The notes beneath the pieces are model-generated. The model ran no database searches, was not told the origin of the DNA, and worked only from the letters and a program-made list of their open reading frames with translations. Both the position numbers and the translations under genes were made by a program. Shown one piece after another: positions 3,549 through 19,161 of a DNA stretch of 33,177 nucleotides (position 1 is its first letter; the number at the start of each line of letters is the position of its first letter). This DNA comes from a virus. The DNA lies in IMG/VR virus record IMGVR_UViG_3300032560_000078, positions 1 through 33,177 of that record, one strand, 5' to 3'.

Positions 3549-3785
3549 TTATTTGTATTTGAGTAAGAACATAGTGCGCAAAGATTCGTCGTAGAAATCC
3601 AAACGAATATCAGTGAATCTATCTAGGAATCCATCTACATCTTCATACCAAGTATGTTCACGTACTGTAAATCCTAGGCGTTGACGACACACCCAGGATA
3701 TACGCACAGCCGCACCATTTTCTTCAATGATGCGGGGCCACAACTTCTTGTGCCAGTATTCAGATTCAAATACCACAGCTTTCAT
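3549..3785 (-). CDS. Small protein, divergent member of the L-R-W family
   Basis: 78 residues. It ends ESLRTMFLLKYK, which matches the C-terminal pattern (T-x-F-x-L-R-W) of the small proteins encoded on the plus strand at 5565-8911. It has Trp/Tyr-rich middle strands (TWYEDVDGFLDRF) like them. Its ATG overlaps the TGA of the preceding gene (ATGA). Here the terminal codons are AAA-TAC rather than AGG-TGG, and no gene is coupled immediately downstream. The function is unknown. Confidence 0.65.
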   Translation of the reverse strand: MKAVVFESEYWHKKLWPRIIEENGAAVRISWVCRQRLGFTVREHTWYEDVDGFLDRFTDIRLDFYDESLRTMFLLKYK

Positions 3786-3991
3786 CGTTTAATAGCGTTT
3801 TTAACTGCCCAAGTAGCTAGTTTAACTGTACACATCTGCGGAATACTAGTCCAGCCCTGTTCAAGTTTAAATGGACATCCGCCCTTGCCCCAAGCACCTG
3901 TGGTCATATACTTTTTATAAGCCAGTAGGTCGTCACGATTAGCGGGATCAAACCTGCGTTTAGGAAATAAATGGTCTAATGAAAAAATCAT
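3782..3991 (-). CDS. Small basic protein, first gene of a minus-strand pair
   Basis: 69 residues, basic and aromatic. Visible segments are LFPKRRFDPANRDDLLAYKK and GKGGCPFKLEQGW. It is preceded by AAGGA at good spacing from the ATG at 3991 and lies downstream of a TTGACT/TATAAT promoter. It overlaps the next gene by ATGA. It faces away from the plus-strand early island, so it is probably also an early gene. No family recognised. Confidence 0.65.
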   Translation of the reverse strand: MIFSLDHLFPKRRFDPANRDDLLAYKKYMTTGAWGKGGCPFKLEQGWTSIPQMCTVKLATWAVKNAIKR

Positions 3992-4016
3992 CTGTGGTTC
4001 CTTTTTTATTGTTCAT
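3960..4016 (-). other. Possible 18-codon leader ORF at a transcript 5' end
   Basis: An ATG lies 7 nt after the -10 box of the minus-strand promoter at 4024-4052. It opens an 18-codon frame (MNNKKGTTDDFFIRPFIS) that runs out of frame over the start of the 69-residue gene. It would be the first codon of a leaderless message. It may be chance; the main gene has its own Shine-Dalgarno. Confidence 0.25.
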
Positions 4017-4023
4017 GTGTAAC

Positions 4024-4052
4024 ATTATACACTCAAAATATCCAAGAGTCAA
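4024..4052 (-). promoter_or_regulatory. Sigma70-like promoter, leftward arm of divergent pair
   Basis: Minus strand: -35 TTGACT (4047-4052), 17-nt spacer, -10 TATAAT (4024-4029). It drives the pair of small genes ending at 3549. It is back to back with the rightward promoter at 4066-4094. Confidence 0.7.
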
Positions 4053-4065
4053 GTGGAATTTTGAC

Positions 4066-4094
4066 TTGCTTTTTTATCTTAAATACTGTATAAT
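4066..4094 (+). promoter_or_regulatory. Sigma70-like promoter of the early island
   Basis: -10 TATAAT (4089-4094), 17-nt spacer, -35 TTGCTT (4066-4071). An overlapping TTGACT lies at 4061-4066 but with a 22-nt spacer. Only 6 nt (acttgt) separate the -10 from the ATG at 4101, so the mRNA is predicted to be leaderless. A TTAAATAC late-like motif also lies at 4079-4086. Confidence 0.65.
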
Positions 4095-4100
4095 ACTTGT

Positions 4101-4418
4101 ATGTTTACTATAACCAAAAAACCTAAATGTTGGGCTATGACAGCTGAACAGGGCTTTATCAGCTTGCCTGCCGGGGTTGTTAAAGAACGCTATAACCAAA
4201 AGGTCTTTGGTGATGATGAGGGTGTTATAGGTTGGACACAGATCATAGACTATGTAGTAGAAGAACTAGAAGGTCGTGTGGGGGTCAAACGCATGAGTTA
4301 CGATACTTGGCATTGGACTAGCCACAGTGAACTTGAGCGATTTTTAACTTATTTTTATTTAAAATATCCTATGCAACTGTGGCAGAAACTACTAGATTCA
4401 GACAAAAATACAGATTGA
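4101..4418 (+). CDS. First gene of the early island, unknown function
   Basis: 105 residues. Its C-terminal part (YDTWHWTSHSELERFLTYFYL then K-Y) resembles the aromatic strand plus T-x-F-x-L-R-W ending of the small paralogues further right, but with an added tail of about 15 residues. The N-terminus MFTITKKPKCWAM is strand-like. There is no room for a Shine-Dalgarno: the -10 box ends 6 nt before the ATG. It is followed by the methyltransferase gene. It is probably a distant member of the island family; the function is unknown. Confidence 0.7.
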   Translation: MFTITKKPKCWAMTAEQGFISLPAGVVKERYNQKVFGDDEGVIGWTQIIDYVVEELEGRVGVKRMSYDTWHWTSHSELERFLTYFYLKYPMQLWQKLLDSDKNTD

Positions 4419-4431
4419 GAAAGAGCAAAGA

Positions 4432-5568
4432 TTGATTAATCAACTACATAAAACCTGGGGTGTTGAACAATATGCTACCCTAGCTAACTTAAGTGACCTG
4501 GGTGAATTTACCTGTTATGAAGCGCACTACGAACAGTTAGCAACCTACACCAAAGAACGTTATAGTCAAGAACCTGAAGTGTGCTTACAAGAAGTATTTG
4601 ACATCTATCGCAGTGTAAACATCACACCTATTGTTTACTTCACTGAACAGGGGTTGATCGCCAAGATCAAAGAGCTGGCCAATACCGCTGGTAATCAAGT
4701 TAACAAAGGTGTGTTAGGCCTAGGCAACAATGGTGGGCAGACAGTTAATCGTTTCTTGTTTCCTAACATGATGACAGCTGAACCCAAAGGTCGTGGCAGT
4801 AACAGTTTAAAGGATCGTTTTTATGATGATAGAAAACTTGAGCGGGCCATTAGGCTTTGTTTTGAGCACAGGGATGGTAATAATCTTGTTAGTCCTACCG
4901 CACTACGTAGAGCTCTTGAGTTGGTCACAGGAGAGAACATACAGAACTTCAAACCCTTAAATGCTCGTGCAGTCAGCTATGAGTTGTGTAATATGCTGTG
5001 GGGTCGTGTCTATGACTACTCAGCTGGCTATGGTGGTCGTATGTTGGGCATTGCCACTGGCAACCTGCGCCATGATTATGAGTGTATAGATCCCAACACT
5101 GAAACTGTCAAGTATCTAGTTTACCTAGCCACCCTAATAGAAAAGTCTGGATTCAGTCGTCCTAGAATTGCGCAGGCAGTCAGTGAAGAATACATTCCTG
5201 AGAACATAGACTTAGCATTTAGTAGTCCACCTTATTTTAACTTGGAAAAATACAGTGATGAACCCACACAGTGTATGAATCAGTTTACTACACTTGATGA
5301 ATGGTTTGATGGTTATGTAGTGCCTACTATGTCAAATATTCACAAAGGATTAAACAGTGATGGAGTATTTGCCACCAACATCGCTGACTATAAGAGTTAT
5401 GGCAACAAAGAATACAAGGTAGTTGACCGCTGGATTGCTACTGCTGAAAAACTAGGCTTCAAACATTCTCGCACTATCAAGATGATGTTGAACACTCGCC
5501 CAGGTGTAGGCAATGACAAAACCAAAGGTCGTGAAAAATGGGAAGGCGTTTACGTTTTTACTAAATGA
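4432..5568 (+). CDS. Putative DNA methyltransferase, SPPY type
   Basis: 378 residues. The catalytic motif IV reads SSPPYF at about 264-269, and the AdoMet-binding motif is DYSAGYGGRMLG at about 195-206, followed by an acidic residue in ECIDPN. The order (binding motif first, then SPPY) and the Ser-Pro-Pro-Tyr signature point to an amino-methyltransferase acting on N4-cytosine or N6-adenine in DNA. The first 190 residues are an extra domain, probably for target recognition. No restriction partner is visible, so it is probably an orphan used for self-protection or regulation. The start is uncertain: the TTG at 4432 has only a weak Shine-Dalgarno, and the frame is open upstream to 4396. Confidence 0.8.
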   Translation: MINQLHKTWGVEQYATLANLSDLGEFTCYEAHYEQLATYTKERYSQEPEVCLQEVFDIYRSVNITPIVYFTEQGLIAKIKELANTAGNQVNKGVLGLGNNGGQTVNRFLFPNMMTAEPKGRGSNSLKDRFYDDRKLERAIRLCFEHRDGNNLVSPTALRRALELVTGENIQNFKPLNARAVSYELCNMLWGRVYDYSAGYGGRMLGIATGNLRHDYECIDPNTETVKYLVYLATLIEKSGFSRPRIAQAVSEEYIPENIDLAFSSPPYFNLEKYSDEPTQCMNQFTTLDEWFDGYVVPTMSNIHKGLNSDGVFATNIADYKSYGNKEYKVVDRWIATAEKLGFKHSRTIKMMLNTRPGVGNDKTKGREKWEGVYVFTK

Positions 5569-5801
5569 GTATATTAGACGGAGGCAATGGGCGTAAGTTT
5601 ATTGCTAGTGGGCCATTTGATCACGAAATGCCTTACCACTATATTGTCATTGCTGACATTAGGTATTGGCTTAACCATGAGTCAGAAATATACACTTGGA
5701 TGGATGAAAATTTGCCTAGAGGTCGTATGCATCAAGAAGGCATGACCATAGCATTAGAAACCAAAGAACAACTGACAGCGTTTTTATTGAGGTGGGCATA
5801 A
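5565..5801 (+). CDS. L-R-W family small protein 1
   Basis: 78 residues. The middle is aromatic (IRYWLNHESEIYTWMDENL) and the end is KEQLTAFLLRWA. The ATG overlaps the methyltransferase stop (ATGA), suggesting translational coupling. The last codons TTG-AGG-TGG form GAGGTGG, the Shine-Dalgarno of the next gene. The layout strand, helix with W-L-x-E/H, aromatic strands, then a final D/E-x-x-T-A-F-x-L-R-W helix or strand is shared across the array. It could be a small ferredoxin-like alpha/beta fold; the function is unknown. Confidence 0.75.
   Translation: MSILDGGNGRKFIASGPFDHEMPYHYIVIADIRYWLNHESEIYTWMDENLPRGRMHQEGMTIALETKEQLTAFLLRWA
5787..5795 (+). promoter_or_regulatory. Shine-Dalgarno inside L-R-W codons
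   Basis: TTGAGGTGG encodes Leu-Arg-Trp at the end of one gene. Its GAGG lies 8 nt before the ATG at 5801. Confidence 0.75.
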
Positions 5802-6049
5802 TGGCTGAAAATTTATACTTAAACCTTAAAGACAACATTGAAGCTACTAAAGTTTGGAATAACTTTATATTAACTGTTATTGCTGAACACGGTCAATATT
5901 ATACATGGGATCATGTCAATACTGCGTTAGCTGACTACAATGCCAAATATCAACTTGTATTAGACAAGCGAGGGGATTACGCCAAAAAACATTATATACG
6001 CTTTGGTACGCCAAACGATCTAACAGCATTTTTAATGAGGTATGCATGA
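5801..6049 (+). CDS. L-R-W family small protein 2
   Basis: 82 residues from the ATG at 5801 (MAENLYLNLKDNIEATKVW). A GTG nine bases earlier is open but lies on the Shine-Dalgarno, so the ATG is preferred. The ATG shares a base with the previous stop (TAATG). It has aromatic strands (GQYYTWDHVN) and ends NDLTAFLMRYA, so the final Trp is replaced by Tyr (TAT) while AGG is kept. Unknown function; clearly one of the array. Confidence 0.75.
   Translation: MAENLYLNLKDNIEATKVWNNFILTVIAEHGQYYTWDHVNTALADYNAKYQLVLDKRGDYAKKHYIRFGTPNDLTAFLMRYA
6035..6043 (+). promoter_or_regulatory. Shine-Dalgarno inside M-R-Y codons
   Basis: ATGAGGTAT encodes Met-Arg-Tyr; GAGG lies 5 nt before the ATG at 6046. Confidence 0.7.
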
Positions 6050-6324
6050 GAGCAGCACCAGCAGAAAGACATCAAGCAGAACATCAGCTACTCAACGAAG
6101 GGTGGCATGCGGTTCGTTTGGTCAAAGTCACTGGCGACAATGGCTGGCGTTATCACAATATGATGAAGTGGTGCGAAGATACTGTTGGCCCAGGCAGACC
6201 AGAACCTGGACATAATTGGTTAGACGACCAAGATGTTTGGTATACATTTAATTGGTATGGTTATTATAATTTTCACTTTAAGCATGCCAATGATGCTACA
6301 GCATTTGCCCTGAGGTGGCTATGA
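6046..6324 (+). CDS. L-R-W family small protein 3
   Basis: 92 residues, start overlapping the previous stop as ATGA. It contains MMKWCEDTVG, shared with the member at 7486 (VMKWCENTWG), which supports common descent. Aromatic strands (VWYTFNWYGYYNFHF) precede the ending NDATAFALRWL. AGG-TGG near the end forms the next gene's ribosome site. Unknown function. Confidence 0.75.
   Translation: MRAAPAERHQAEHQLLNEGWHAVRLVKVTGDNGWRYHNMMKWCEDTVGPGRPEPGHNWLDDQDVWYTFNWYGYYNFHFKHANDATAFALRWL
6310..6318 (+). promoter_or_regulatory. Shine-Dalgarno inside L-R-W codons
   Basis: CTGAGGTGG encodes Leu-Arg-Trp; GAGG lies 6 nt before the ATG at 6321. Confidence 0.75.
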
Positions 6325-6608
6325 CTTCACAAAATGATTTATATAGCACACCAGAGGCTCGTGCCAATACGGCATTTGATCCTGATGCTGATTTATATCG
6401 TATTCATAAATTTTTATTAAAGAGTAATCATTATTGGCAGTCTATATCACCTAACAATGTTGATAATGATAAATTCTACGCTTGGCTAAAAGATGAATAC
6501 GGTGTAGAACTTCAATTTAACCATGGTGGTAATGGTATGATTGGTATTAATGGGTATACTGTTGTAGATGAACAAAAGTTTTTAATATTTACGTTAAAAT
6601 TCCAATGA
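6321..6608 (+). CDS. L-R-W family small protein 4, degenerate ending
   Basis: 95 residues from the ATG at 6321 (MTSQNDLYSTPEARAN), chosen over an in-frame GTG six bases upstream because of the spacing to GAGGTGG. The middle FYAWLKDEYGVELQF matches the family helix. It ends DEQKFLIFTLKFQ: the L-R-W is changed to L-K-F, the AGG-TGG codons are lost, and no Shine-Dalgarno precedes the next gene, which must rely on ATGA coupling. Confidence 0.7.
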   Translation: MTSQNDLYSTPEARANTAFDPDADLYRIHKFLLKSNHYWQSISPNNVDNDKFYAWLKDEYGVELQFNHGGNGMIGINGYTVVDEQKFLIFTLKFQ

Positions 6609-6826
6609 AAAGAACGCTAATCAACGGTGAATTACTAGACAGCATCGAAAGCCATTTCCAGCGAAATAATGGATATTTTGTTGCTGACGAACTACCGGGT
6701 TGGCTAATGGCCATGGATAGTAGTGTCACTGTGTGTAGATGGCACATGGATGAGTTTTATCTATATCTAGGTGTGGTGTTTGCTAAAGAAGAAGATTATA
6801 CTGCTTTTTGTCTGAGGTGGCTATGA
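6605..6826 (+). CDS. L-R-W family small protein 5
   Basis: 73 residues, start overlapping the previous stop (ATGA) without a visible Shine-Dalgarno. It contains LPGWLMAMDSSVTVCRW and ends EEDYTAFCLRWL. The final codons carry the ribosome site of the next gene. Unknown function; array member by its ending and position. Confidence 0.7.
   Translation: MKRTLINGELLDSIESHFQRNNGYFVADELPGWLMAMDSSVTVCRWHMDEFYLYLGVVFAKEEDYTAFCLRWL
6812..6820 (+). promoter_or_regulatory. Shine-Dalgarno inside L-R-W codons
   Basis: CTGAGGTGG encodes Leu-Arg-Trp; GAGG lies 6 nt before the ATG at 6823. Confidence 0.75.
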
Positions 6827-7038
6827 AAGTTCTAATACGTGACATCCCCTCAGCGTTTCGTAATGCCAATCAGGTGGTAATTGCCAAAGGTGGATTTGGG
6901 CTAGAGCGACACCAACACAAAGATGCCTTTGAGCAATTACACAATGTAAAAATTATTAGAAGTCCGTGGGGGTCTTGGGATGAATTGGTTTTTCCTAATA
7001 AACAAGCATATACTATGTTCTTGTTGAGGTGGAGTTAA
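6823..7038 (+). CDS. L-R-W family small protein 6
   Basis: 71 residues from the ATG at 6823 (MKVLIRDIPSAFRN); an in-frame TTG at 6808 lies within the upstream motif and is less likely. It has KDAFEQLHNVKIIRSPWGSW and ends KQAYTMFLLRWS. It is the least aromatic of the array. The start overlaps the previous stop (ATGA). Unknown function. Confidence 0.7.
   Translation: MKVLIRDIPSAFRNANQVVIAKGGFGLERHQHKDAFEQLHNVKIIRSPWGSWDELVFPNKQAYTMFLLRWS
7024..7032 (+). promoter_or_regulatory. Shine-Dalgarno inside L-R-W codons
   Basis: TTGAGGTGG encodes Leu-Arg-Trp; GAGG lies 8 nt before the ATG at 7038. Confidence 0.75.
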
Positions 7039-7271
7039 TGGCATACTATTACAACGGAACAAGTCATTATATTAAAGTCACAGCCCGTGGTGACTATTAT
7101 GAGTATTCAACGGCAGTTGCGTTTAGGGACGAAGTTGATGCTTGGTTAGAGGCCCATGAGATCAATACTCTTTACGAAGATATGGAATATATCGTCAATG
7201 GTAAGTATGAATACCATTTCCTCTGTTTAAAAGAAGAACATGCTACCATGGTAAAGTTGAGGTGGTCATGA
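7038..7271 (+). CDS. L-R-W family small protein 7
   Basis: 77 residues from the ATG at 7038, which shares a base with the previous stop (TAATG). It contains VDAWLEAHEINTLYEDMEYI, the family helix and strand, and ends EEHATMVKLRWS. The AGG-TGG codons again supply the next ribosome site. Unknown function. Confidence 0.75.
   Translation: MAYYYNGTSHYIKVTARGDYYEYSTAVAFRDEVDAWLEAHEINTLYEDMEYIVNGKYEYHFLCLKEEHATMVKLRWS
7257..7265 (+). promoter_or_regulatory. Shine-Dalgarno inside L-R-W codons
   Basis: TTGAGGTGG encodes Leu-Arg-Trp; GAGG lies 5 nt before the ATG at 7268. Confidence 0.75.
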
Positions 7272-7471
7272 ATCTAAAGAAAATATCTGGCAGTGATCGT
7301 GCTAGTATCTACATAATGAGTCCTTATGAGGACCTCTACGCTGATGACTATAAAAAATTTATTAATTGGTTAGAAGAGTACTGTCCAAATGAATATGAAA
7401 TAGACCATAGCTATTTAACTATAACCGCACATGCTGAAGTGATGTTGGCATTGACTTTTGAGTGCGTTTAG
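7268..7471 (+). CDS. L-R-W family small protein 8, ending replaced
   Basis: 67 residues, start overlapping the previous stop (ATGA). The helix FINWLEEYCPNEYEID fits the family (compare WLEAHE and WLKDEYG in neighbours). It ends AEVMLALTFECV, so L-R-W and its AGG-TGG codons are gone. Instead its last codons contain the -35 region of a promoter for the next gene. This looks like a trade of one downstream expression signal for another. Confidence 0.7.
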   Translation: MNLKKISGSDRASIYIMSPYEDLYADDYKKFINWLEEYCPNEYEIDHSYLTITAHAEVMLALTFECV

Positions 7472-7479
7472 TGTATAAT
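7451..7479 (+). promoter_or_regulatory. Consensus sigma70-like promoter inside the island
   Basis: -35 TTGACT (7451-7456), 17-nt spacer, -10 TATAAT (7474-7479). The ATG at 7486 follows after 6 nt (attagt), so the transcript should start at or next to the start codon. The -35 lies in the coding end of the upstream gene. Confidence 0.75.
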
Positions 7480-7485
7480 ATTAGT

Positions 7486-7800
7486 ATGAGTAAAATAATG
7501 CACTATAAATCACCAAATGTTGTCAAACTTGATGGCAGATACAAAGGCTACAATCGTGGCTTTAGGTATCGCATTGACTTTGACACACAAGGTGAAAAAT
7601 GGCACATTTGGATGGCGGTAATGAAATGGTGCGAAAATACCTGGGGTAAAGAATACACCTGGGGTAATGACGGGTTTCTTCCTCGCCAGGTGTGGAGCAA
7701 CGACTATAGTACAGCACATGGCAAAAAGAATAAGTATTACAGACATTTATATCTATGTCGTGAAGAGGATGTTACAATGATGTTATTGGTGGTACAATGA
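7486..7800 (+). CDS. L-R-W family small protein 9, ending shifted
   Basis: 104 residues from the ATG at 7486. An in-frame GTG at 7462 lies upstream of the -10 box, so the ATG is preferred. VMKWCENTWGKEYTW matches the member at 6046. It ends EEDVTMMLLVVQ from TTG-GTG-GTA, which looks like TTG-AGG-TGG after loss of a base pair or so, leaving GGTGG as a possible ribosome site for the phosphoesterase. The stop overlaps the next start (ATGA). Confidence 0.7.
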   Translation: MSKIMHYKSPNVVKLDGRYKGYNRGFRYRIDFDTQGEKWHIWMAVMKWCENTWGKEYTWGNDGFLPRQVWSNDYSTAHGKKNKYYRHLYLCREEDVTMMLLVVQ

Positions 7801-8687
7801 AAATTGCATTGGGTAGTGACCTACACTTAGAGTTTGGTACAATAGAACTACACAATACAGAAAGTGCAGATGTGCTTGTACTTGCTGGCGACATCTGTGT
7901 GGCCCGTGATATTGAACTTATGAACAGTAACTTAAAAGCACAGCGCGGTCGTGCTGAACGTTACTTGGCATTCTTTGAACAAATATCAAAGGAGTTTCCC
8001 AAGGTTGTCTACGTCATGGGCAATCACGAACACTATCACGGTGACTTCAAATATACCTATGGTATTCTTAAAAATGCCTTAGGTCATTTGGAAAACGTCC
8101 ATATATTAGAAAAAGACGTATTAGTTGTAGATGATGTTACCATCATTGGTGCTACTGTTTGGACTGATATGAATGGTAGTGATTCTGTTACCTTGCGTGA
8201 AATGCCGCACATAATGAACGACTTCCACGGTGTAGATAACAGCAATCATATGATACAACGTAAAGTGCCATTGTATCATTATGATGATGTAGCTAAGACA
8301 CAGACAGTTACATATAAGATTAAAGAGTCTGCTGGTAAGTTTAAACCAGAACACGCAGTAGAAGACCACAACAAGGCCCTAGACTACATCAATCATGTTG
8401 TAGCAGAACGTGCTGACCAAAAGTTTGTGGTTGTATCACATCACTGTCCAAGTGAGCAGAGTGTACATGCTAAGTACCGAGCTGACACAATTATGAATGG
8501 TGGCTTCCGTAGTAACCTAGATGACTTCATAGCTTATCGTCCACAGATTAAATTATGGTGTCATGGTCATACACACGAGGACTTTGACTATGTCTTAGGT
8601 GAAACACGTGTGGTGTGTAACCCACGTGGCTATGTCAATCATGAGAATCGTGCTGGATACTTTGAACTAAAATACATTGAGGTATGA
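7797..8687 (+). CDS. Calcineurin-like metallophosphoesterase
   Basis: 296 residues with the full metal-binding motif set of the family: D8-L-H10, G31-D32, G75-N76-H77-E, H215-H216, and G257-H258-T-H260. These bind two metal ions and catalyse phosphoester hydrolysis. The substrate (protein, nucleotide or nucleic-acid end) cannot be read from the sequence. It overlaps the upstream small gene by ATGA and the downstream one by four bases, so it is part of the early island. No signal peptide is seen, so it is cytoplasmic. Confidence 0.85.
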   Translation: MKIALGSDLHLEFGTIELHNTESADVLVLAGDICVARDIELMNSNLKAQRGRAERYLAFFEQISKEFPKVVYVMGNHEHYHGDFKYTYGILKNALGHLENVHILEKDVLVVDDVTIIGATVWTDMNGSDSVTLREMPHIMNDFHGVDNSNHMIQRKVPLYHYDDVAKTQTVTYKIKESAGKFKPEHAVEDHNKALDYINHVVAERADQKFVVVSHHCPSEQSVHAKYRADTIMNGGFRSNLDDFIAYRPQIKLWCHGHTHEDFDYVLGETRVVCNPRGYVNHENRAGYFELKYIEV

Positions 8688-8911
8688 TAGAGCTAAAATT
8701 GTGGCCGCCGCCTGAAGAATGGGAAGAAGTAGTAATAACCTGGGAAGTTATGTTGCACAGTGGAATTCACAAACCTCCTGTTATACTAGATTGGGTAGAA
8801 TCAGCTCCAGGTGGCCGCTATCATCTGCACGGGTGGCGTGGCACGGAAGGATTTGCCTTCCGCTTTGAAGATCCCGCAGATGCAACTTATTTTAGATTGA
8901 CTTGGTGTTAG
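8684..8911 (+). CDS. L-R-W family small protein 10, last of the island
   Basis: 75 residues. It ends DPADATYFRLTWC, matching the array ending apart from Arg to Thr. The middle (VILDWVESAPGGRYHLHGW) is the family helix and strand. No gene follows on this strand and the AGG codon is absent, which fits the idea that AGG-TGG is kept for the downstream gene. The ATG overlaps the phosphoesterase stop; the nearby GAGGT abuts the ATG and is too close to be an ideal ribosome site. Confidence 0.7.
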   Translation: MIELKLWPPPEEWEEVVITWEVMLHSGIHKPPVILDWVESAPGGRYHLHGWRGTEGFAFRFEDPADATYFRLTWC

Positions 8912-17787: not shown

Positions 17788-17816
17788 AGTATATAGTACT
17801 AATTAGAAAAGGTCAA
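17788..17816 (-). promoter_or_regulatory. Sigma70-like promoter of the exonuclease gene
   Basis: Minus strand: -35 TTGACC (17811-17816, overlapping the iscA stop), 17-nt spacer, -10 TATACT (17788-17793), then 6 nt to the ATG at 17781. It predicts a leaderless message. Confidence 0.65.
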
Positions 17817-18133
17817 ACAGTAAATGATTCGCCGCACCCACAACGTGCTTTCTCGTTAGGGTTAGCAAACTCAAAACCTTCATTAAGACCTTTTTTGGTA
17901 TAATCTATTTCCATACCCTGTAGGTATACTAGGTCTTTTTTATTGATTATAAGAGTAACGCCGCGTTCTTCTATTTCAAGATCGCCATCAAACGTTTGAT
18001 CAGCAAATTCTAGCAAGTAAGCAAAACCACTACAGCCACTGGTGCGCACACCAATACGCATGCCTATACCTTTCTTGCGATTGTACAAGGCATCTTGCAT
18101 TTTTTTTGCGGCATTAGCTGTTAAGGTTATCAT
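17813..18133 (-). CDS. iscA: Fe-S cluster assembly protein IscA
   Basis: 106 residues, the normal IscA length. The three cluster cysteines are C34 (SGCSGF) and C98-G-C100 (RCGCGESF). IscA carries iron or a [2Fe-2S]/[4Fe-4S] cluster to client enzymes in the cytoplasm. It overlaps the end of iscU by 20 bases, with AGGAAG as ribosome site, and the radical SAM gene lies upstream in the same direction. Its frame is intact, unlike iscU. Confidence 0.92.
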   Translation of the reverse strand: MITLTANAAKKMQDALYNRKKGIGMRIGVRTSGCSGFAYLLEFADQTFDGDLEIEERGVTLIINKKDLVYLQGMEIDYTKKGLNEGFEFANPNEKARCGCGESFTV

Positions 18134-18431
18134 GTTTCTTCCTATAATCTTCTATAGCTGATTTGATTGCATCCTCAGCAAGCACCGAACAGTGTATCTT
18201 AACGGGCGGTAATGCGAGTTCTTCTGCAATCGCTGAGTTCTTAATTTCACCAGCTTCCTTGAGCGTTCTGCCTTTGAGCATTTCTGTAACAAGAGACGAG
18301 CTAGCAATCGCTGAGCCACAGCCATAGGTTTTGAATTTTGCATCTGTTATAATTCCATTCTCCACTTTTATCTGGAGCTTCATTACATCTCCGTCATCCG
18401 CAAGCTGGCGCACCAACCATACCTGTGCCAA
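18114..18431 (-). CDS. iscU: IscU C-terminal part, open frame from TTG
   Basis: Open frame of 105 residues, from TTG at 18431. From residue 14 on it is IscU (GDVMKLQIKV, TYGCGSAIASSS, LPPVKIHC), with two of the three cluster cysteines and the HscA-binding LPPVK. The first 13 residues come from the wrong frame. GGAGG lies 9 nt upstream of the TTG, so separate translation is possible, but the sequence there also encodes normal IscU residues in the other frame, so the match may be chance. Confidence 0.6.
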   Translation of the reverse strand: MAQVWLVRQLADDGDVMKLQIKVENGIITDAKFKTYGCGSAIASSSLVTEMLKGRTLKEAGEIKNSAIAEELALPPVKIHCSVLAEDAIKSAIEDYRKKHDNLNS

Positions 18432-18510
18432 CTTGCGGATCCTCCTTATTCATGCTTCCAACATTTCTTGGATTTTCGTAATGGTCAAGCACTTTTGTGC
18501 TGTAAGACAT
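18114..18510 (-). pseudogene. iscU: iscU with a frame break after the first cysteine
   Basis: IscU is the scaffold on which Fe-S clusters are built. From ATG at 18510 the frame reads normally (MSYSTKVLDHYENPRNVG, then GAPACG) and stops at TGA (18394-18396), giving 38 residues. The rest of IscU follows in the +1 frame. Compared with the family's A-C-G-D-V-M-K, there are 7 extra bases (TGACGGA or an equivalent register), an imperfect tandem copy of CGGATGA/CGGAGAT. The break falls just after the first cluster cysteine. It may be a true mutation, an assembly error, or a programmed frameshift at TGA-C. AGGAGA in the HNH gene's last codons is its ribosome site. Confidence 0.8.
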
Positions 18511-18511
18511 T

Positions 18512-19099
18512 TTAATCTCCTATAATAGATTTAACAACATCATCAGGTTGGAAACTATCCCATTTACTTCTGTTTTCTTCACCTAATATAAATCTTAGAT
18601 TCTTTCTACCGCCAATTATTTTAGGATCTATCCCCAATTGAAATCCCTGTTCGTACGGAATAATATGATCCATTTGCCAATCTGTTTTTCTTTTGCCTAA
18701 TTTGGGAACCATACCTTCTTTCTTCATAGCGTACCAAGAACGATATGTTGCTTTTTTACATTCTCTTTTGTATGCTGTAAATTCATCATCTACATAATTC
18801 TTAGGGCGTTGATTATTAATTTTTCCATCCCAATTGGGATTTCCTTTGCCTGTCCATTTTTCTGATTGGAGTTGATTTGGTATGCCTTTATTCCATCCCC
18901 AACCTTTTGTAAGCCCGCTTGTATTTTGTTTTGCTTTTTGTTCTTCTGTAAGTTTAACCCCTTTATTCCAGGGATCATATTCTCCTCTATTTAAAGGATT
19001 TTTACATTTTTGAGAACAATAATCTAAGAAACGAGGTTTAGTTTCAAAGTCATTTCCGCAATATAAACACTTCTTAATAATACCATATTTGTTTTTCAT
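18512..19099 (-). CDS. HNH homing endonuclease, free-standing
   Basis: 195 residues from ATG at 19099. An in-frame ATG at 19141 exists, but the promoter motif ATAAATAC lies between the two, so 19099 is preferred. The N-terminus has a zinc knuckle (CLYCGNDF...YCSQKC), then NUMOD-like repeats (PWNKG, GWNKGIPN), then the HNH core W-Q-M-D-H-I-I-P with N-L-R and ENRSKWD. It lies between the radical SAM gene and iscU, and its stop is one base from the iscU start. Such enzymes nick or cut DNA near their own site to spread. Confidence 0.88.
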   Translation of the reverse strand: MKNKYGIIKKCLYCGNDFETKPRFLDYCSQKCKNPLNRGEYDPWNKGVKLTEEQKAKQNTSGLTKGWGWNKGIPNQLQSEKWTGKGNPNWDGKINNQRPKNYVDDEFTAYKRECKKATYRSWYAMKKEGMVPKLGKRKTDWQMDHIIPYEQGFQLGIDPKIIGGRKNLRFILGEENRSKWDSFQPDDVVKSIIGD

Positions 19100-19103
19100 A
19101 CAA

Positions 19104-19111
19104 GTATTTAT
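19104..19111 (-). promoter_or_regulatory. Late-type promoter motif before the HNH gene
   Basis: ATAAATAC followed by TTGT and the ATG at 19099. Near-leaderless geometry. Confidence 0.5.
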
Positions 19112-19161
19112 CATCTTGGCGCACAAGCATGTGAAAAACAATAGTATACTAAAATACTAAA

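What the first reader, a model, noticed from the sequence alone, without database searches (positions are those of the whole stretch)
3549..8911. Tandem array of small paralogous proteins ending in T-x-F-x-L-R-W
About ten small proteins (67-104 residues) at 5565-8911, plus diverged ones at 3549 and perhaps 4101, share a C-terminal pattern D/E-x-x-T-A/M-F-x-L-R-W, a W-L-E/W-C-E helix and aromatic strands. The rest of each sequence is very different (a shared MKWCE only in two). Such rapidly diverging tandem expansions in an early-expressed phage region are typical of host-takeover or anti-defence genes, but no function is known to me.
Basis: partly seen in the sequence, partly recalled or inferred. 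Interest (0 to 1): 0.75.

Follow-up and report, generated by a model that had tools for sequence, protein, structure and literature searches.

The report
Shuffled phage gene array, shared C-terminus
A freshwater virus of bacteria carries a row of overlapping tiny genes whose proteins share one small C-terminal domain, whose last codons also start translation of the next gene; the same undescribed family recurs in hundreds of copies in other uncultured and giant phages, and some relatives elsewhere carry pieces of the phage capsid protein.

Summary
Ten small overlapping genes (5565-7800, 8684-8911) and the diverged gene at 3549-3785 belong to one unnamed family, called LRW here. Two window members are predicted to share a helix-strand-strand-helix core.

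The shared ending has two causes. F-x-L-[R/K]-W is protein-level: it stays when no gene follows. Arg over Lys and the codon AGG are ribosome-site constraint: AGG in 238/306 Arg codons when a gene follows closely, 7/40 when none does. Each gene's last codons are the Shine-Dalgarno site of the next.

Orthologs are conserved (dN/dS about 0.05-0.3) but their order is scrambled, and a methylase-like and a phosphoesterase gene shuffle with them. Sigma70-like promoters sit about 6 nt before start codons, so first genes are probably leaderless and host-transcribed.

Unexpected: in at least ten other phages, LRW cores are fused to pieces of major capsid protein gp23, mostly the conserved Gol region. 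No such piece was found in the window.

Most likely the arrays are early accessory antagonists of host defence; that function is inferred.

The parts
3549..3785 (-). LRW member A (78 aa, ends MFLLKYK), diverged, on the opposite strand here
   Evidence: profile E 0.067; orthologs inside arrays of L104 5e-14, L050 3e-14, L145 9e-16, L006 3e-11, L007, L123; strand opposite to the other members in the window
4101..4418 (+). Gene B (105 aa), possible member with a C-terminal extension after FYLKYP
   Evidence: orthologs inside arrays of L124 (9e-13), L144 (3e-12), L007 (5e-6); no profile hit
4089..4100 (+). TATAAT followed by 6 nt and the ATG of gene B: predicted leaderless start
   Evidence: sequence; TATAAT-6 nt-ATG enriched in these loci, 29 cases against 0-5 for control hexamers
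4432..5568 (+). DNA methylase-like gene that shuffles with the array
   Evidence: Pfam N6_N4_Mtase E 0.008, below its curated cut-off; position varies between relatives
5565..5801 (+). LRW member C, ends TAFLLRWA
   Evidence: profile E 5e-10; dN/dS about 0.05-0.2 with orthologs
5781..5803 (+). Example junction TTTTTATTGAGGTGGGCATAATG: coding end of C is the Shine-Dalgarno of D
   Evidence: sequence; junction consensus from 277 junctions
5801..6049 (+). LRW member D, ends TAFLMRYA
   Evidence: profile E 0.04; ortholog in the L144 array 8e-15
6046..6324 (+). LRW member E, contains MKWCE, ends TAFALRWL
   Evidence: profile E 2e-14; AlphaFold pLDDT 85, pTM 0.78
6315..6608 (+). LRW member F, ends LIFTLKFQ, most diverged; no Shine-Dalgarno at its end
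   Evidence: iterated search joins it to LRW proteins; model pLDDT 72.6, pTM 0.51, same C-terminal core
6605..6826 (+). LRW member G, ends TAFCLRWL
   Evidence: profile E 2e-5
6823..7038 (+). LRW member H, ends TMFLLRWS
   Evidence: profile E 8e-5; orthologs in L006 and L144
7038..7271 (+). LRW member I, ends TMVKLRWS
   Evidence: profile E 5e-5
7268..7471 (+). LRW member J, ends LALTFECV; its LTF codons carry a promoter -35 box
   Evidence: profile E 0.08; orthologs in L007, L104, L124
7451..7479 (+). TTGACT-17-TATAAT promoter-like site, 6 nt before the ATG of K
   Evidence: 11 of 12 consensus matches; spacing enriched across loci; total promoter count in the region is not above shuffles
7486..7800 (+). 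LRW member K, contains MKWCE, ends TMMLLVVQ
   Evidence: profile E 7e-6; orthologs in L007 and L124
7797..8687 (+). Calcineurin-like metallophosphoesterase that travels with LRW arrays
   Evidence: Pfam Metallophos E 5e-10; beside or within arrays in L124, L050, L145, L006, L123, L152
8684..8911 (+). LRW member L, ends TYFRLTWC; no co-directional gene follows and no Shine-Dalgarno at its end
   Evidence: profile E 2e-9; sequence

Best explanation
The locus is a modular array of small phage proteins of one new family (LRW), each with a variable N-terminal part and a conserved helix-strand-strand-helix C-terminal core ending in F-x-L-[R/K]-W. SHOWN: members overlap head to tail; the codons for L-R-W read (C/T)TG AGG TGG and sit where the Shine-Dalgarno of the next gene must be, so each gene brings the ribosome site of its successor; orthologs are conserved while order is scrambled; sigma70-like promoter boxes lie 5-7 nt before start codons more often than chance. 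INFERRED: because almost any member can stand before any other without losing translation, arrays grow, lose and reorder members freely; first genes are read as leaderless mRNAs by host RNA polymerase early in infection; each member uses its variable part to bind one host or rival-phage target while the common core is a stable scaffold or docking part, so the array acts as a repertoire of accessory antagonists (host takeover or anti-defence). In other phages the variable part is a piece of gp23, suggesting that some members imitate the capsid protein to occupy a factor that recognises it (a capsid-sensing defence, EF-Tu or a Lit-like protease).
For: Overlaps and AGGTGG junctions. AGG 238/306 against 7/40, p 1e-13; R over K 306/376 against 40/80, p 3e-8; AAG among Lys codons 31/70 against 5/40. 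F-x-L-x-W in 400/448 with and 94/124 without a following gene. Shared core in two models. Order scrambled: window against L007 0 of 8 successive pairs kept, against L124 0 of 7. dN/dS about 0.05-0.3. TATAAT-6-ATG 29 times against 0-5 for control hexamers. gp23 modules E 5e-10 to 6e-4 against best control 0.0024; in L268 and L269 next to other LRW genes; L260 has the gp23 piece on the C-terminal side. Capsid proteins are known triggers of bacterial defences (PMC9712102, PMC11312562).
Against: No member has a tested function. No match to a defence family except scattered weak PADLOC hits in single relatives. No gp23 piece was found in the window's members. No expression data. Arrays of small ORFs could serve other purposes. 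The conserved core residues are aromatic and hydrophobic and may be purely structural.
Confidence: 0.4

Rival explanations
1. The shared ending is only a ribosome-site constraint: unrelated overlapping small genes converge on LRW because AGGTGG is needed for the next gene.
For: AGG and Arg are strongly enriched when a gene follows closely; the junction GAGGTGGTCATGA resembles the complement of the 16S 3' end (general knowledge).
Against: F-x-L-x-W persists without a following gene (94 of 124; Trp in 82 of those 94) with AGG lost; 8684-8911 keeps FRLTW with no gene downstream; further conserved positions upstream, W42, F78 and the DAT stretch; shared predicted core.
Confidence: 0.05
2. The family acts on the phage's own particle or replication: gp23-derived arms dock LRW proteins on the prohead or its chaperone, and helicase-derived pieces on the replisome, as regulators or decoration proteins.
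For: Modules come from core proteins: gp23 47-97, 148-226, 318-343 and the replicative helicase P-loop (E 9e-5).
Against: Most members show no such piece; isolated fragments of a capsid fold rarely assemble (general knowledge); host-type promoters suggest early rather than late use.
Confidence: 0.2
3. Weapons against rival phages: gp23 and helicase fragments act as dominant negatives on co-infecting phages.
For: Fragments match the most conserved parts of core proteins and are no closer to the own gp23 than to others (Phosso gp170: 17/33 identities to its own gp23, 15/32 and 16/32 to others).
Against: They would also threaten the producing phage; no data.
Confidence: 0.12
4. Anti-restriction or DNA-mimic proteins, given the linked methylase-like gene.
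For: A methylase-like gene shuffles within the array; 36 percent of members have net charge -3 or lower.
Against: Mean net charge is only -1.0 and 18 percent are +3 or higher; no family match.
Confidence: 0.1

Closest known systems
Hypervariable early regions of T4-like phages (small host-takeover ORFs)
   Same: small, overlapping, accessory genes in T4-like genomes
   Different: those genes are mostly unrelated to each other (general knowledge); here one family fills the array and its ends double as ribosome sites; T4, P-SSM2, S-PM2, HTVC008M and S-CRM01 show no member
Major capsid protein gp23 (PF07068) and its Gol region
   Same: LRW members in about ten other phages carry gp23 segments
   Different: 30-55 residues only, fused to an unrelated core; never a full capsid fold; none in the window
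Uncharacterized proteins of uncultured Caudovirales phage and Agrobacterium phage Atu_ph07 (BFVD)
   Same: best structural matches of the 6046-6324 model, best E 2e-4
   Different: no name or function given; probably the same family
Gol/Lit exclusion (E. coli)
   Same: the gp23 piece most often borrowed is the region reported to bind EF-Tu and activate Lit (PMC3014915)
   Different: no Lit or EF-Tu link tested here; the Gol region is also reported as the most conserved part of gp23, so its frequency may be detection bias

Membership tests
LRW family (defined here) | C-terminal F-x-[LM]-x-[WYF] within 4 residues of the stop | tested here: met
   met by most window members, not by 7486-7800 and 7268-7471 in strict form
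LRW family (defined here) | profile match or orthology to array members elsewhere | tested here: met
LRW family (defined here) | common helix-strand-strand-helix core | tested here: met
   two models only; the second is modest, pTM 0.51
T4 gp23 major capsid protein | full HK97-type capsid domain | tested here: not met
   window members have no PF07068 match; relatives elsewhere have fragments only
Known anti-phage defence or anti-defence families | match to a PADLOC, Pfam or PHROG model | tested here: not met
   a single PtuB hit at 6e-5 in one of 105 aligned proteins
Phage early host-takeover proteins | early expression and effect on host | not testable with these tools
   only promoter-like sites seen
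Gol-like EF-Tu binders | binding to EF-Tu | not testable with these tools
   sequence resemblance in other phages only

The most novel reading that the evidence does not exclude
The arrays are a decoy repertoire: a common scaffold presents borrowed pieces of the phage's own conserved proteins (capsid gp23 in three different segments, replicative helicase P-loop), so that host sensors that recognise those proteins are occupied without being triggered, and the self-contained ribosome site lets new decoys be added or swapped by recombination.
Probability: 0.18. Interest if true: 0.92.

Novelty: new variant of a known kind. Interest (0 to 1): 0.66.

Why it matters
A large protein family of environmental and giant phages has gone unnamed because its members are short and almost unalike outside the last 40 residues. 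It shows how phages can build freely shuffled operons: the conserved protein end is also the next gene's ribosome site. The gp23 fusions, if confirmed, make it testable whether phages answer capsid-sensing immunity with capsid mimics, and cultured Phosso on Sinorhizobium meliloti offers a laboratory system.

Tried and rejected
Pfam and PHROG hits of single window members (IMS, DNA polymerase, 3-dmu-9_3-mt, DUF1642) are below cut-offs and taken as chance. PDB fold search gave nothing better than E 0.97. PDB sequence search gave only weak mTOR FRB hits, E 0.3. tblastn of single members or a consensus against annotated phages found nothing except Phosso at E 0.5, which proved real. My recollection that marine cyanophages carry this motif was tested and not supported. 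First clustering of N-termini by single linkage merged most members and was replaced by per-member search. Weak PHROG hits to NrdA, UvsX, terminase and RNA polymerase in single members (E 7e-4 to 0.02) were not confirmed by search against long ORFs of the fetched phages and are not claimed. A polymerase motif-like stretch in L123 2349-2621 was not confirmed. A scan of bacterial genomes found two stray matches only. Literature searches for the family or for capsid-fragment decoys found nothing.
Full report
Observation. From 5565 to 7471 every gene overlaps the next. Their ends share F-x-L-R-W with exceptions: 5801-6049 ends FLMRYA, 6315-6608 FTLKFQ, 7268-7471 ALTFECV, 7486-7800 MMLLVVQ, 8684-8911 FRLTWC. 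No Pfam or PHROG family fits.

Reach of the family. Close relatives of 6046-6324 exist in five IMG/VR contigs. A profile from these finds 713 matches at E below 0.01 among the 19,374 ORFs of the fetched loci (duplicates included), against none below 0.1 in reversed sequences; 572 are distinct. Some loci are almost nothing but this family: L115 has about 30 consecutive overlapping ORFs of this type between 2229 and 9719 (my reading of the ORF list, the strict profile counts 24). Contigs reach 385-607 kb. Cultured Sinorhizobium phage Phosso holds 47 members by profile, Agrobacterium phage Atu_ph07 six and Pseudoalteromonas phage XG4 one; T4, P-SSM2, S-PM2, HTVC008M, S-CRM01, Xanthomonas X1 and phiN3 none at E 0.01. 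Bacterial genomes gave two stray pattern matches.

One fold. AlphaFold with a 105-sequence alignment gives pLDDT 85 and pTM 0.78 for 6046-6324 (H5-17 E21-26 H34-47 E50-52 E65-69 E73-78 H81-91). The most diverged array gene, 6315-6608, modelled from its own 24-sequence alignment, ends in H51-62 E64-70 E76-83 H86-95 (pLDDT 72.6, pTM 0.51): the same C-terminal helix-strand-strand-helix order. Members are rich in Trp (5.1 against 1.4 percent).

What the ending is. Among distinct members, F-x-L-x-W is present in 400 of 448 followed by an overlapping or adjacent gene and in 94 of 124 that are not. So the pattern is a protein feature. The residue before Trp and its codon depend on the next gene: R:K is 306:70 with a next gene and 40:40 without; AGG is 238 of 306 Arg codons against 7 of 40 (p 1e-13); Lys AAG 31 of 70 against 5 of 40; AGG is rare among the other Arg codons of the same genes, 175 of 2288. 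The seed pattern required Arg, but the codon result holds in members outside the seed (178 of 226 against 3 of 29). Over 277 ATGA junctions the consensus is TTTATATTGAGGTGGTCATGA, which fits the complement of the 16S rRNA 3' end (general knowledge). Thus each gene's last codons are the Shine-Dalgarno of the next. In the window, 6315-6608 lacks it (AAAATTCCAATGA) and 8684-8911 has no successor.

Shuffling. Orthologs of A, B, methylase, C, D, E, F, H, J, K, phosphoesterase and L occur in other phages in other orders; between the window and L007 none of eight successive pairs is kept, with L124 none of seven, while L144 keeps three of three. Orthologs are conserved, dN/dS about 0.05-0.3 (Nei-Gojobori, dS near saturation for some C and H pairs). 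So the array is reordered old genes rather than fast-evolving ones. The near-repeat at every junction would help recombination; that is inference.

Transcription. TTGACT-17-TATAAT at 7451-7479 lies six bases before the ATG of 7486-7800, overlapping the coding end of 7268-7471. TATAAT at 4089-4094 lies six bases before the ATG of 4101. In the fetched loci TATAAT stands 6 nt before the ATG of an ORF 29 times, and 5 or 7 nt 12 and 13 times, against about 5 at most other short distances and 0-5 at 6 nt for control hexamers; many examples have TTGAC about 17 nt upstream. This suggests leaderless first genes read by host-type RNA polymerase. The number of promoter-like sites in the region as a whole is not above shuffled sequence, so the evidence is the spacing.

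Borrowed capsid pieces. One aligned member matched Pfam Gp23 at 6e-9, which led to the following. A systematic search of 613 N-termini against long ORFs of the same phages found gp23 in eight distinct members at E 5e-10 to 6e-4 and the DnaB-like replicative helicase P-loop in two (9e-5, 6e-4); the best hit of shuffled and reversed controls was 0.0024. The gp23 pieces are residues 47-97 of G003 gp23 (L115, L101, L102, L080/L083, L123, and L180; also L150, whose end is MLKHS), 148-226 (L117, L123) and 318-343 (Phosso gp170). Further phages gave L241 (6e-11), L268 and L269; in L269 the capsid-piece gene is followed at once by another LRW gene that bears an E-I-D-x-E-I-x helix. That helix module, found in 48 members, one per locus, matches all three full gp23 sequences at 7e-5 to 1e-4 and nothing else below 0.35; because its seeds were chosen by weak gp23 similarity this is partly circular. 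In L260 the gp23 piece follows an LRW-like stretch (AALFKFSW) instead of preceding it, so the fusions probably arose more than once. Phosso also has a gp23-like piece without LRW (182280). The 47-97 piece corresponds to the Gol region, reported to bind EF-Tu, activate Lit and be the most conserved part of gp23 (PMC3014915); the alignment to T4 numbering is from my knowledge, and its frequency may be detection bias. No window member showed such a piece.

Mechanism. I favour a repertoire of early accessory antagonists built on one scaffold, probability about 0.4. Shown: family, common core (by prediction), dual coding, shuffling, purifying selection. Inferred: early expression, target binding by the variable part, and anti-defence or takeover function.

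Noticed in passing
window 4089-4101, 7474-7486; also L048, L050, L070, L101, L106, L123 and others: Consensus promoters with TATAAT 5-7 nt before the start codon, i.e. probable leaderless phage mRNAs (29 cases at 6 nt against 0-5 for control hexamers). The window's primase (start 30932) and helicase (start 29899) genes show it too.
   Followed up: partly
L115:8467-8811, L123:3072-3470(-), L269:766-1122(-), L268:831-1217(-), L241, L180, L260, Phosso 113923-114303: Small proteins with pieces of major capsid protein gp23, mostly the Gol region, fused to the LRW core.
   Followed up: yes
L083, L080:9938-10294, L121, L123:5235-5660(-), L070:3831-4223(-): LRW members with an intact-looking Walker A motif (GRQTGKS, GRNIGKS); in L083/L080 similar to the replicative helicase P-loop.
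   Followed up: partly
window 17813-18525 and 18512-19141: Phage-encoded IscA-like and IscU-like proteins; the IscU-like frame seems to lack its normal N-terminus, and an ORF resembling an HNH homing endonuclease lies just upstream, so the gene may be interrupted. Judged by eye only.
   Followed up: no
window 4432-5568 and 7797-8687: The methylase-like and metallophosphoesterase genes change place between relatives just like LRW genes, as if part of the same shuffling pool.
   Followed up: partly
G002 (149 kb near-identical contig) 45196 +: Another LRW gene (64 aa open frame, ends TLFLLRWA, overlapping the next ATG) far from the array.
   Followed up: no
A2 alignment members: One relative matches the PADLOC PtuB (Septu) model at 6e-5; not identified further.
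   Followed up: no
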